A stretch of 50,604 nucleotides of DNA, from NCBI GenBank assembly GCA_902778145.1, contig CACYWW010000018.1, positions 1-50,604 on the forward strand. The letters run 5' to 3'. Positions 15,785 through 50,604 of the stretch are shown here, piece by piece. The position numbers and the translations under genes are program-made. The stretch's first letter is position 1. Each line of letters opens with the position of its first letter. The notes under the pieces are model-generated. The model was not told where the DNA came from. It saw only the letters and a list, made by a program, of their open reading frames with translations, and made no database searches. This DNA is from an uncultured Ruminococcus sp. (GTDB taxonomy: Bacteria; Bacillota; Clostridia; Oscillospirales; CAG-272).

Positions 15785-15805
15785 AAAAAGCGTTTGCTGA
15801 AGCGT

Positions 15806-16129
15806 GGTGCTCTAAAGGACAGTCAATAAAAACCGGCTGAGGTAAGGACAATGAAGTCATTATTTCAGACGGTTTTTTCGTCGCATATCACAGCAAGCAG
15901 GACGTTTGTGTGCCAAACGTCAAAACAGTGAAATCTTTTGCCTTGCGGCAATCTTTTGCCTTGCGGCAAAAGGTGAAATCTTCGGGCTTCGTGACGCGTT
16001 CGGTGAAATGAAATCCACCCACCGTCGAGGCGGATTTCACTGCCCGCAGGGCAATTTCACCGCCGCAGGCGATTTCACCCACCCTGAAAGGGTGGGTTTC
16101 GTTGCCGACTGTCCTTTAGAACAGTCGGC
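15806..16129 (+). repeat. MITE-like hairpin-array element, copy A
   Basis: A non-coding element of about 324 bp. Near its ends are perfect inverted repeats: TCTAAAGGACAGTC (15811-15824) and GACTGTCCTTTAGA (16107-16120). In order it holds a terminator-like hairpin with a T run (about 15829-15880), a GACGTTTG/CAAACGTC hairpin (15901-15921), GTGAAAT linkers (15928, 15973, 16003) and inverted ATTTCAC linkers (16034, 16054, 16072) separated by GC-rich hairpins, and a terminal GCCGACTGT/ACAGTCGGC hairpin (16104-16129). Copy B (35426-35710) is the same element in the other orientation. The insertion lies between AAGCGTTTGC (15788-15797) and GCAAGCGCTT (16134-16143), which together read as one interrupted terminator stem. 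Confidence 0.85.
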
Positions 16130-16141
16130 AGATGCAAGCGC

Positions 16142-16885
16142 TTATTTTATTTTACCGGAAAGCATCTCTCCGTTGAAGGATACGTTGCCGCGCTCTTCAT
16201 CGGCTTCCGTTTCCGCCGGATCCGTTATCATCCTGTCGAACCATTCGACCTCAGACTTTCCGTCGCGGCTTACGCGGCTTATGAACGTTCTGTCGATCGT
16301 ACCGCTGTAACAGCATTTGACGAGATCGTCATCTGTAAGAACACACAGAAGACTGTCCTGTATCTCGCCGTTTACGGTGAAGATGATCTCAAATCTGCCA
16401 TCCTCCGCGTTGTAGCTCACTTTATAAGAGCAGTCATCGTCCTTTTTCTTTGCCGTGAATTCTGCGGCGTTTTCTTCCTCTTTGTACGATCTGTCGTCAT
16501 ATCCGCGCAGCGCGAAATACATGTCAAGCCTGGCGGCGGAGTTTTCATCAAAGAACATCTCCGCTATTTCAGAAAGATCGTCACCGTGCTCATACGCCGT
16601 GATGCCGTAACCGTATTTCTGACCCATTATCGAATTGATCGCGTTCTCGGTATTTTTGAAATACTCTTTGTTTGCGGTCTTATATTCGGCAAAAAGATTT
16701 TTATAATCAGCGTATTTGCCGCTGTCCGGAATATCGGAGGTCTCGGCGGTATCGCTCATCAGGCTTTCGATCACGTCAGGGATCACGGGTCTGCAGGAAC
16801 TCAGAATAAAACTGCATAACAGGAATGATGTGACGGATAACGTGATCAGAATTCCCCATCTGTTTTTTTTCAATTCATTATCCAA
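16142..16885 (-). CDS. Putative lipoprotein of unknown function
   Basis: 247 aa. A basic N-terminus and hydrophobic segment (about 11-30) end in LSSC, a plausible lipobox with Cys at about residue 31, so the protein is probably exported and lipid-anchored. A Ser/Thr/Asp-rich linker and a soluble domain with many charged residues follow. I recognise no family. It has its own promoter (16937-16965). The stop codon lies inside the right arm of the terminator stem interrupted by repeat copy A. Confidence 0.75.
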   Translation of the reverse strand: MDNELKKNRWGILITLSVTSFLLCSFILSSCRPVIPDVIESLMSDTAETSDIPDSGKYADYKNLFAEYKTANKEYFKNTENAINSIMGQKYGYGITAYEHGDDLSEIAEMFFDENSAARLDMYFALRGYDDRSYKEEENAAEFTAKKKDDDCSYKVSYNAEDGRFEIIFTVNGEIQDSLLCVLTDDDLVKCCYSGTIDRTFISRVSRDGKSEVEWFDRMITDPAETEADEERGNVSFNGEMLSGKIK

Positions 16886-35405: not shown

Positions 35406-35425
35406 AATAAAAACGGGGTCACTTA

Positions 35426-35710
35426 GCCGACTGTTCCGAAGGACAGTCGGCAACGAAATCCACCCCTGCGTGGTGGGTGAAATCGCCTGCGGCGGTGGGT
35501 GGATTTCATTTCACCGAACGCATAAGCGTTCGATTTCACCTGAGGGCAACGCCCGAAGATTTCACCTTTTGCCGTAAGGCAAAAGATTTCACTTTTTTGA
35601 CGTTTGGCACACAAACGTCCTGCTTGCGCCATTCTGCGACAAAACCCGGCTGAGATAAGGATCATTTTCCTTACTTCAGCCGGCTTTGATTAACTGTCCT
35701 TTAGAGCACC
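35426..35710 (-). repeat. MITE-like hairpin-array element, copy B
   Basis: Same element as 15806-16129, inverted. Read on the minus strand it begins GGTGCTCTAAAGGACAGT, continues with a terminator-like hairpin (about 35645-35690), the GACGTTTG/CAAACGTC hairpin, GTGAAAT linkers alternating with hairpins (for example CTTTTGCC/GGCAAAAG and CGAACGC/GCGTTCG), inverted ATTTCAC linkers, and the terminal GCCGACTGT/ACAGTCGGC hairpin (35426-35451). Compared with copy A, stems are kept while several loop bases differ. It lies between AAAAACGGGG (35409-35418) and CCCCGTTTTT (35718-35727), a perfect 10-bp stem interrupted by the element. Confidence 0.85.
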
Positions 35711-35730
35711 TTGCGTTCCCCGTTTTTTGT

Positions 35731-48864: not shown

Positions 48865-48953
48865 GCCGGAGTGGCGAAATTGGCAGACGCCCGGGACTTA
48901 AAATCCCGTGGGACCTAAATCCCGTACCGGTTCGAGCCCGGTTTCCGGCACCA
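48865..48953 (+). tRNA. tRNA-Leu (anticodon TAA)
   Basis: 89 nt with encoded CCA. Acceptor GCCGGAG pairs with TTCCGGC; anticodon stem CGGGA/TCCCG with loop CTTAAAA gives anticodon TAA; a long variable arm (TGGGACCTAAATCCCGTA) marks a class II tRNA; the T-arm loop is TTCGAGC. Confidence 0.96.
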
Positions 48954-48959
48954 TAATAT

Positions 48960-49035
48960 CGCGGGGTGGAGCAGCTGGCAGCTCGTCGGGCTCATAACCC
49001 GGAGGTCGTAGGTTCGAATCCTTCCCCCGCAACCA
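48960..49035 (+). tRNA. Initiator tRNA-fMet (anticodon CAT)
   Basis: 76 nt with CCA. The C1:A72 mismatch (CGCGGGG against CCCCGCA) and the three G-C pairs of the anticodon stem (TCGGG/CCCGG around loop CTCATAA) are the initiator hallmarks. It is 6 nt after tRNA-Leu in the same operon. Confidence 0.96.
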
Positions 49036-49403: not shown

Positions 49404-50604
49404 TTATCCTCCTTCCTCGGTTTCTTCTCCGTCGTCGCCGTAGTGTACCTTGATCGGCGCGCAGGAGATATACTCCACCGAAACGCCCTGCCTCGTGTCC
49501 TCCGAAAAGCGGGTCTGTTCCTCCGGGATCTCGAGATAGCCGACGAAGCGGTAGTAGATCACCACGCGCTGGGTGCGGTTCTTGCCCACGCCCTCGGTCT
49601 CGTGCACCTCGATCCGGTCGATCAGCTCGGTCAGAAGATTCTTCGTCAGCATCTTCATTTCCATAAAGCGCCGGATCGCGCGGACGAACTTGTCCCGCTC
49701 GTAGCGGCGGTCTTCGAGATCCTTCATCTTCTCCTGCAAAACGATGATCCGCTCCTTCAGCCGCCCGCGTTCCTCGTTGTACTCGCGGGAGAGGATCATA
49801 AAATCCTCGTCCGAGACCTTTTCGCTCAGGTTGTTCTCGTAGAGCTGCTTCAAAAGCTTCGGGATCAGCTCCAGCCGCTTGGTCGCCTTGGTAAGCTCCC
49901 CGGTCGTCTGCTTGTGAGCCGTCTGATACTCCTTATCGCTCTTTCGCGCTAAGATCTCGGCGAAACGGTCCTCGTCGTTCCGCAGATAGTCCGCGAGTCT
50001 GCGCAGCTCCATCGTCACGATGGTGTAGAGCGCGTCGGCGCGGATATAGTGGCGGGTCTTGCAGGTGCCGCGATAGTCCTTTTCGTAGTTTGAACAGGAG
50101 AAAAAGTGGATATCCTTATTGGTGGTGCTGGTGTGATACCACAGCTTTTTCCCGCAGTCCGCGCAGTAGACGAGATCGCAGAAGATGCTTTTCGGACCGT
50201 TTTCCTCCTTCGGCGGGCGGCGCTTGGTCTTGCCGATCAGCTTCTGCACCTTTTCAAAGGTGGAGCGGTCGACGATGGGCTCGTGCACGTCGCGGAAGAT
50301 CATCTGATTCTCCTTCGGATTTTCAAGACGCTGCTTGTTTTTGAAGGACTTGGAGTAGGTCTTGAAATTGATGACGTCTCCGCAGTATTCCTGCCGCGAG
50401 AGGATGCCGGCGATCGTGGAGCATTTCCACTTGCAGGGATTGGGCTGAGTCTTCTTGCCGCCTCTGCCCACGCCCTTTTCGTGCCAATAGGCGGTGCAGT
50501 TGAGATGCCCCTCGTCCTGCATGATGCGGGCGATGGTGTCGATGCCGTTGCCTTCGAGATAGAGCTTGAAGATCTCCCGCACCACCGGCGCCGCCTCCGG
50601 GTCG
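49404..50604 (-). CDS. Large serine recombinase, C-terminal part (truncated by window end)
   Basis: The reading frame is open to the window edge; about 400 C-terminal residues are seen and the N-terminal catalytic resolvase domain lies outside. Visible: the Recombinase domain (VVREIFKLYLEGNGIDTIARIMQDEGHL and CSTIAGILSRQEYCGDVINFKT), a zinc ribbon (YCADCGKKLWYH...FSCSNYEKDYRGTCKTRHYIR), a coiled coil (about 270-330 of the visible part) and a DUF4368-like tail (LTKNLLTELIDRIEVHETEG...VVIYYRFVGYLEIPEE). This matches TnpX/TndX-type recombinases of clostridial mobilisable elements. The gene is more GC-rich than its surroundings, consistent with transfer. The element end probably lies in 49036-49403. 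Confidence 0.93.
   Translation of the reverse strand, partial: DPEAAPVVREIFKLYLEGNGIDTIARIMQDEGHLNCTAYWHEKGVGRGGKKTQPNPCKWKCSTIAGILSRQEYCGDVINFKTYSKSFKNKQRLENPKENQMIFRDVHEPIVDRSTFEKVQKLIGKTKRRPPKEENGPKSIFCDLVYCADCGKKLWYHTSTTNKDIHFFSCSNYEKDYRGTCKTRHYIRADALYTIVTMELRRLADYLRNDEDRFAEILARKSDKEYQTAHKQTTGELTKATKRLELIPKLLKQLYENNLSEKVSDEDFMILSREYNEERGRLKERIIVLQEKMKDLEDRRYERDKFVRAIRRFMEMKMLTKNLLTELIDRIEVHETEGVGKNRTQRVVIYYRFVGYLEIPEEQTRFSEDTRQGVSVEYISCAPIKVHYGDDGEETEEGG

What the first reader, a model, noticed from the sequence alone, without database searches (positions are those of the whole stretch)
35409..35727. Copy B is also inside a terminator stem, giving two independent cases
AAAAACGGGG (35409-35418) and CCCCGTTTTT (35718-35727) are a perfect 10-bp stem with A/T tracts, split by the element. 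Seven bases remain between stem and element on each side. As with copy A, the element is oriented with its GGTGCTCTAAAGGACAGT end towards a gene 3' end, about 20 nt from the stop codon, in a convergent gene pair. Two of two copies showing this is unlikely by chance. Some insertion sequences are known to target terminators, but this element is non-coding and hairpin-rich, so a helper transposase would be elsewhere.
Basis: partly seen in the sequence, partly recalled or inferred. Interest (0 to 1): 0.82.

Follow-up and report, generated by a model that had tools for sequence, protein, structure and literature searches.

The report
Recombinase-borne mini-elements inside gene terminators

Summary
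Copy B (35425-35715) splits a perfect 10-bp terminator stem. Of 36 complete copies from this genome and relatives, 27 have a strong split stem (27% of mismatched flank pairs do), 31 have A and T tracts at fixed distance, and 29 carry the same dinucleotide on both sides (permuted mean 8, maximum 18). Relatives show uninterrupted terminators at two orthologous sites. The ends share one geometry: TCCTT-N14-[2-bp core]-N14-AAGGA. The same right end follows the 3' end of a DUF4368 large serine recombinase (LSR) gene, seen over 170, 34 and 20 residues on three contigs. In 3 of 4 genomes with that end, a left end beside the partner terminator arm lies on another contig. I conclude that copies A and B are MITE-like passengers of Tn4451/TnpX-like LSR elements that use intrinsic terminators as attachment sites. 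Copy A contains the orphan RNA family Gut-1. Gaps: no experiment, no LSR with exactly these ends found in this genome, no complete LSR element on one contig.

The parts
35409..35418 (+). left arm of the split terminator (AAAAACGGGG), host sequence
   Evidence: joined-flank fold
35423..35424 (+). left copy of the 2-bp core (TT)
35425..35715 (+). copy B, the mobile element (291 bp)
   Evidence: ends defined from 36 complete copies and from empty sites of other copies
35426..35451 (+). left-end hairpin GCCGACTGTTCCGAAGGACAGTCGGC, with AAGGA at 35439-35443, 14 nt from the core
35451..35594 (+). variable hairpin array; in this copy only sub-threshold Gut-1 (RF01706) matches (31.9 and 38.5 bits, cut-off 50)
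35593..35710 (+). right module shared by many copies: ACGTTTG/CAAACGT hairpin, long CCGGCTG hairpin, then ACTGTCCTTTAGAGCACC; function unknown
   Evidence: many matches cover query 194-311
35697..35715 (+). right arm of the proposed attP: TCCTT followed by N14 up to the core
   Evidence: same end next to LSR genes
35716..35717 (+). right copy of the 2-bp core (TT)
35718..35727 (+). right arm of the split terminator (CCCCGTTTTT)
15788..15797 (+). copy A: terminator arm AAGCGTTTGC
   Evidence: joined-flank fold
15799..15800 (-). copy A: right copy of the core (TC on the minus strand)
15801..16130 (-). copy A, the second copy of the element (330 bp)
16029..16104 (-). Gut-1 RNA family match (RF01706, 70.4 bits, cut-off 50) inside copy A
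16131..16132 (-). copy A: left copy of the core (TC on the minus strand)
16134..16143 (+). copy A: partner terminator arm GCAAGCGCTT

Best explanation
Copy B is a MITE-like, non-autonomous integrative element. It moves when a DUF4368-type large serine recombinase, encoded by a separate integrative element, recombines the circular junction of the element (attP: TCCTT-N14-XY-N14-AAGGA) with an intrinsic terminator (attB: A-tract, about 10 bp, XY in the loop, about 10 bp, T-tract). Shown by sequence: the ends, the shared 2-bp core, the split terminators, the empty sites, and the identity of the right end with the end that follows LSR genes. Inferred: excision as a circle, action of the LSR in trans, that the ends on separate contigs belong to one LSR element, and that the insertions survive because the terminator arms can still pair around a hairpin-rich insert.
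For: (1) Core: the dinucleotides next to the element are equal on both sides in 29 of 36 complete copies; permuted flanks mean 8.2, maximum 18 in 10,000; shifting the boundary by 1-3 nt gives 4-11 of 36. XY is TT, TA, TC, CA, AT, CT or GA and tends to go with the five element bases beside it (TTGC mostly TT, TCGC mostly TA, ACGC or ACAC TC or CA), as expected if one core travels with the element. (2) AAGGA lies 14 nt from the left core in 35 of 36 copies. (3) Target: A is 81-95% at positions 13-15 of 48 left flanks, T is 80-91% at positions 13-16 of 115 right flanks (half copies, cargo and LSR elements included). (4) Uninterrupted terminators at orthologous sites: G000:C24 against G007 (L189), G000:C2 against G006 and G005 (L190, L191). 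(5) LSR link: the right end follows LSR coding sequence on L094 (170 aa), L111 (34 residues matched) and L101 (20 residues); on L094 the coding sequence ends 72 nt before the end of AGCACC. The L094 piece is DUF4368 and 43.6% identical over 165 aa to the C-terminus of the complete LSR L250. Left ends TGCCC...GTTCTTAAGGACAGT lie beside the partner terminator arm in 3 of the 4 genomes with that right end (G405, G408, G407; cores AA, AA, TA). (6) Two further LSR kinds in the genus (L251 in G007, L239 in G005) end in TCCTT-N14-core before a T-tract. (7) The G406 left end is followed by a TnpV gene. (8) Cargo elements with such ends in split terminators: L089, L134, L137, L162.
Against: No LSR whose own end has the exact family-1 motif was found in the window's genome; its C70 LSR has a related but different end, and its contig stops at the core. 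Of 22 DUF4368 loci of the genus examined, only 3 (L239, L250, L251) have a TCCTT-N14 end; the other 19 do not within the stretch seen. Left and right ends of each LSR element lie on different contigs; G407's right-end contig (L090) holds no LSR coding sequence, only the shared DNA before the end; in G406 the left end found has a non-matching flank; and the left-end pattern is not specific by itself (26 hits against 13 for the reversed control). 7 of 36 copies have unequal core dinucleotides. No circular junction in viral contigs. Gapless identity of joined flanks to the empty sites is only 42, 36 and 38 of 58. Stems are commoner at insertions than at background tract sites (19 of 31 against 216 of 1790), so tracts alone do not explain the target; with strict tracts and GC-rich arms the difference is not significant (9 of 13 against 9 of 21, p 0.17).
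Confidence: 0.82

Rival explanations
1. A DDE transposase with a 2-bp target duplication (for example an IS30-like enzyme, recalled to prefer palindromic targets) moves the element in trans.
For: 2-bp direct repeats and subterminal inverted repeats; near-perfect terminal inverted repeats in L134 (by eye).
Against: No transposase among the ORFs of the four cargo elements (five of their proteins were scanned with Pfam). The core dinucleotide goes with element subtype, not expected of a staggered-cut duplication. LSR coding sequence precedes the same right end. IS30 and other DDE families were not searched for in the genus.
Confidence: 0.1
2. A single-strand (Y1: IS200/IS605 or RAYT) transposase inserts the element into the exposed loop of the terminator hairpin.
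For: Hairpin ends and insertion in hairpin loops. Weak Y1 matches in 5 of 12 genomes of the genus, 2 of 12 over the cut-off.
Against: The five Y1 genes carry or adjoin other palindromes (GTAG type in four by eye), not these ends. No match in the window's genome, which has the most exact right ends (23). Both ends are symmetrical about a duplicated core.
Confidence: 0.04
3. An RNA-guided IS110/IS1111 recombinase moves it; the structured insert would be the guide RNA.
For: A 2-bp core and subterminal inverted repeats also fit IS110/IS1111 (recalled; the seekRNA paper PMC11187229 was seen only as a search listing).
Against: No Transposase_20 match in any of 12 genomes of the genus. Terminator arms differ from site to site while the element changes little.
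Confidence: 0.02
4. The element is not mobile but a conserved RNA structure that evolved around terminators.
For: Very strong fold (z -11.4) and a Gut-1 match in copy A.
Against: Near-identical copies at unrelated sites of different genomes (L081/L082 99.4%, L121/L172 98.5%), uninterrupted orthologous sites, shared 2-bp core, interior replaced by genes in relatives.
Confidence: 0.02

Closest known systems
Tn4451/Tn4453 (TnpX) integrative mobilizable elements
   Same: Large serine recombinase, recombination between 2-bp identical sequences, low integration specificity, a TnpV gene (passages of PMC5704250 and PMC3158075; here); relaxase and NikA-like genes beside the related L266 LSR
   Different: Copies A and B carry no recombinase gene, are about 0.3 kb and multicopy; the target is an intrinsic terminator
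Multi-targeting DUF4368 LSR clade
   Same: DUF4368 domain and many targets; one example has a TT core with A/T-rich outer arms (passages of PMC10083194)
   Different: 'Terminator' has 0 occurrences in that paper's main text; no mini-elements in the passages I saw
MITEs of prokaryotes, including SPRITE (terminator-like) and TIMEs (Tn3-derived)
   Same: Short, non-coding, multicopy, intergenic, ends shared with a larger element
   Different: SPRITE is itself terminator-like rather than inserted into terminators, as far as the passages tell; 'serine' has 0 occurrences in the review PMC10969869 (passages). TIMEs seen only as a search listing
Gut-1 RNA (RF01706)
   Same: Copy A and 7 other copies in this genome contain a Gut-1 match over the cut-off, about 25 nt behind the left end
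   Different: Described as a noncoding RNA found only in environmental (human gut) sequences; no mobile context in the passages seen (PMC2864571)
REP/RAYT and IS110/IS1111 elements at palindromes
   Same: Association with intergenic palindromes (recalled)
   Different: Different enzymes; tested here and not supported

Membership tests
MITE (non-autonomous miniature element) | Short, no transposase or recombinase gene, multicopy | tested here: met
   291 and 330 bp; the only ORF of 80 aa or more lying across most of copy B is one of 80 aa on the minus strand; 51 BLAST pieces in the genome
MITE (non-autonomous miniature element) | Ends shared with an autonomous element | tested here: met
   TCCTTTAGAGCACC follows LSR coding sequence on 3 contigs; left ends with GTTCTTAAGGACAGT beside partner arms in 3 genomes
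MITE (non-autonomous miniature element) | Direct repeats from the target on both sides | tested here: met
   2-bp repeats in 29 of 36
LSR element of Tn4451/TnpX type (the larger helper) | Recombinase with Resolvase, Recombinase and zinc-ribbon domains | tested here: inconclusive
   met for the related L266 LSR; for the family-1 LSR only the C-terminal 170 aa with DUF4368 is on the contig
LSR element of Tn4451/TnpX type (the larger helper) | Same 2-bp core at both ends | tested here: met
   AA, AA, TA in three genomes, with the two ends on separate contigs
LSR element of Tn4451/TnpX type (the larger helper) | Excision as a circle by the recombinase | not testable with these tools
   no experiment; no circular junction of the mini-element in viral contigs
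IS110/IS1111 | DEDD/Transposase_20 enzyme | tested here: not met
   no match in 12 genomes of the genus
IS200/IS605 or RAYT/REP | Y1 transposase linked to these ends | tested here: not met
   matches in 5 of 12 genomes, none in the window's genome; none of the five is bordered by these ends
IS30 or other DDE elements | DDE transposase linked to these ends | tested here: inconclusive
   none seen in the four cargo elements; no family search made in the genus
Gut-1 RNA (RF01706) | Score over the curated cut-off | tested here: inconclusive
   copy A met (70.4 bits, cut-off 50); copy B not met (31.9 and 38.5 bits), so copy B is not filed as Gut-1

The most novel reading that the evidence does not exclude
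Intrinsic terminators are the dedicated attachment sites of a clade of DUF4368 serine recombinases. A community of elements shares this safe harbour: integrative elements, single-gene cassettes and non-coding hairpin-array mini-elements of several families. The orphan RNA family Gut-1 is in large part a module of such mini-elements rather than a host RNA.
Probability: 0.6. Interest if true: 0.82.

Novelty: new variant of a known kind. Interest (0 to 1): 0.76.

Why it matters
It gives a concrete target rule (tracts, arms and core of an intrinsic terminator) to part of a recombinase clade known as multi-targeting, suggests how integrative elements can enter dense bacterial genomes without breaking genes, and offers a mobile-element context for an RNA family that has had none. 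LSRs with a terminator preference would also be of practical interest as integration tools that avoid coding sequence.

Tried and rejected
Viral contigs: 11 pattern hits, none with a left end of this kind, taken as chance; no LSR relative among viral contigs; no circular junction. Y1 and IS110 as helpers: not supported. Order-wide search for the cargo-type right end: 2 of 394 genomes; the family of one hit held a single genome. Pure tract model: not sufficient (also 118 relaxed tract sites in the window alone, 12 with a stem of 6 or more). For the L010 copy I looked at L192 as an empty site: 24 nt across the junction are identical, consistent with a CA duplication, but the sequence upstream differs (30 of 58 without gaps), so it is another copy of the same repeated end, not an orthologous site. 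Copy B itself: after the orthologous upstream gene, three relatives have a plain hairpin terminator (L212, L215, L209) and four have other hairpin arrays (L217, L218, L206, L219), too diverged to align base by base. Several other copies (L005, L009, L018, L023) gave no usable empty site.

Rows dropped: the set of 36 needs the left pattern (one substitution allowed) and the right pattern within 700 bp and flanks of 30 bases without N; half copies at contig ends, cargo and LSR elements and copies with degenerate ends (L002, L004, L026) are left out. Loci L105, L109, L146, L153, L163 and the 11 viral loci were left out of the flank profile as chance matches. L247, one of 23 DUF4368 matches, was not examined.

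Full report
What was claimed.

The observation. The two stem arms are exactly where stated. The element gives 51 matching pieces in the whole genome. The right-end pattern ACTGTCCTTHAGAGYACC occurs 23 times in this genome and in 10 of 12 genomes of the genus, this one included, and in 93 stretches of the species collection, by their titles mostly rumen and gut Clostridia. At least five of those (L105, L109, L146, L153, L163) have no T-tract behind the end and are taken as chance. I called a copy complete if it had the left hairpin and the right end within 700 bp and clean flanks. That gives 36 copies with distinct flanks, 12 in this genome and 24 in relatives.

Target. The best stem between the two flanks scores 9 or more in 27 of 36 copies, against 27.2% of 1260 mismatched pairs. 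Inside the tracts, 22 of 36 have a run of 6 or more pairs, against 12.6% of mismatched pairs. The profile of 48 left and 115 right flanks shows tracts at fixed positions: A at 13-16 and T at 13-17, counted outward with the core as 1-2. Both tracts (3 of 4 letters) are present in 31 of 36 copies. Of the 8 copies with no run of 5 or more, 7 keep the A tract, 7 keep the T tract and 6 keep both. On the other side, of 1790 background sites with similar tracts only 216 have a run of 6, against 19 of 31 insertions (p 2e-10); with all eight tract letters required it is 17 of 68 against 9 of 14 (p 0.009), and with GC-rich arms as well 9 of 21 against 9 of 13 (p 0.17). So both features mark the target, and I cannot separate recognition of the hairpin from selection that removes insertions outside terminators.

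Core and ends. Taking the element from one base outside the left hairpin to five bases beyond ...AGCACC, the neighbouring dinucleotides are equal in 29 of 36 copies; permuted flanks give 8.2 on average and 18 at most in 10,000; moving the boundary by 1 to 3 nt gives 4 to 11. The seven exceptions are L169, L053, L081, L139, L114, L161 and L124. The dinucleotide varies and tends to go with the five element bases next to it. AAGGA lies 14 nt from the left core in 35 of 36 copies. TCCTT lies 14 nt from the right core in all 36, but there the search pattern and my choice of boundary fix the distance. A symmetric layout around a 2-bp core is what an attP of a large serine recombinase looks like (recalled).

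Empty sites. The copy at G000:C24 has an orthologous site in G007 (L189, upstream gene end 90.7% identical) with an uninterrupted terminator, AAAAAACGCGGTATCAAAACCGCGTTTT; the copy at G000:C2 has uninterrupted terminators in G006 (L190) and G005 (L191). The joined flanks of the filled sites agree with these at 42, 36 and 38 of 58 positions without gaps, so the loops cannot be compared base by base. After the gene upstream of copy B, G007, G009 and G011 have a plain hairpin terminator, while G005, G006, G004 and G010 have other hairpin arrays, which suggests repeated use of this site.

The interior varies. Copy A contains a Gut-1 match (70.4 bits, cut-off 50). In the genome 13 Gut-1 matches pass the cut-off; by their coordinates 8 of 13 lie about 25 nt behind a family-1 left end. 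Of the other five, three follow an intact terminator-like hairpin and two follow a T-run, by eye. Larger relatives with such ends in split terminators carry genes: a methyltransferase (L134), DUF4932 plus DUF559 (L089), VanZ plus a DUF559-like protein (L162, the latter by eye) and a helix-turn-helix/TPR protein (L137).

The helper. On L094, L111 and L101 the right end follows the 3' end of a recombinase gene with nearly the same DNA in between; the coding sequence on these contigs covers 170, 34 and 20 residues of the L094 piece. L090 shares only the DNA just before the end. The 170 aa is DUF4368 and 43.6% identical over 165 aa to the C-terminus of the 573-aa LSR of G000:C70 (L250), which has Resolvase, Recombinase, zinc-ribbon and DUF4368 domains and lies beside relaxase, NikA-like and actin-like genes. 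That LSR element ends in TCCTT-N14-TT; in G000 the contig stops at the core, in G007 (L251) it runs on into a T-tract behind what I read, without a scan, as ATP synthase genes. L239 in G005 ends the same way. The other 19 of 22 DUF4368 loci examined do not; several of them lie near tRNA-like sequence, by eye. A search of five genomes for an A-tract plus AAGGACAGT (26 hits against 13 for the reversed control) found left ends: in G405 AAAAAAACCATCCGGAA|TGCCCGGTGTTCTTAAGGACAGT, whose arm pairs with AATTCCGGATGGTTTTTTT at the right end of L094; likewise in G408 with L111 and in G407 with L090. In G406 (L101) the left end found has another flank; it is followed by a TnpV gene. This left end differs from the mini-element TGCCGACTGTTCTTAAGGACAGT at 3 of 23 positions. 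The mini-elements therefore look like LSR elements whose interior has been replaced.

How it most likely works. The LSR excises a circle joining both ends at the core, then recombines it with a terminator whose loop holds the same dinucleotide. This is inferred; for Tn4451 the recombinase is reported to act between 2-bp identical sequences and in both directions without a directionality factor (passages of PMC5704250). The terminator arms remain on both sides and in copy B still pair around the insert in a computed fold, so the host gene may keep its terminator; untested.

Alternatives. Y1 enzymes are weak matches in 5 of 12 genomes, not in this one, and are not bordered by these ends. No IS110 enzyme matched in 12 genomes. 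DDE enzymes were not searched for by family in the genus and remain the main rival.

What is known. DUF4368 LSRs are known as multi-targeting, one with a TT core and A/T-rich arms; 'terminator' has no occurrence in that paper (PMC10083194, passages). PMC13137831 was seen in one passage. Gut-1 is listed as a noncoding RNA from the human gut (PMC2864571, passages). Nine searches of the held library (capped listings) listed no paper on serine-recombinase mini-elements or on LSRs that target terminators; most subscription papers are not held, so this is not proof of absence.

Verdict. A real, general phenomenon: a family of mini-elements in terminators, most likely moved by a serine recombinase. 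New variant of a known kind.

Noticed in passing
window 49404-50585 (-): Another DUF4368 large serine recombinase (393 aa in the listed frame) near the window end, close to tRNA genes at 48865-49032; distant from the L094 type (22% identity over 126 aa).
   Followed up: partly
L089, L134, L137, L162: Cassette-like elements with such ends carrying genes (DUF559, VanZ, methyltransferase, DUF4932, HTH-TPR); several share a 3' region with hairpins or a GTCGGTAGGTAA-like motif near one end.
   Followed up: partly
L217, L218, L202, L205, L221: A third hairpin-array family (GGTGTACTTCGTAAGGAAGTACACC followed by GCAGCTAAATT repeats); in L217 and L218 it follows the ortholog of the gene upstream of copy B. 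AAGGA stands at a similar spacing, by eye.
   Followed up: partly
L041, L042, L047, L048: Gut-1 matches in a second context: behind an intact terminator-like hairpin (three cases) or a T-run (two cases), each followed by CAACTAAATCC.
   Followed up: no
L232-L236: RAYT-like Y1 genes whose coding sequences or flanks contain palindromes, GTAG-starting in four by eye (for example GTAGGGCGGGGGCTTGCTCCCGCC), partly translated in frame.
   Followed up: no
L010 (G000:C34), L007, L025, L192: A second family of ends, TGCCCGACCGTCATAAGGAAGT, like the end of the L250 LSR element; in L010 a family-1 element sits inside it.
   Followed up: partly
G000 contig ends, e.g. C30, C33, C36, C37, C39, C75, C78: Contigs of this assembly often break inside these repeats, so copy numbers are lower bounds.
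   Followed up: no
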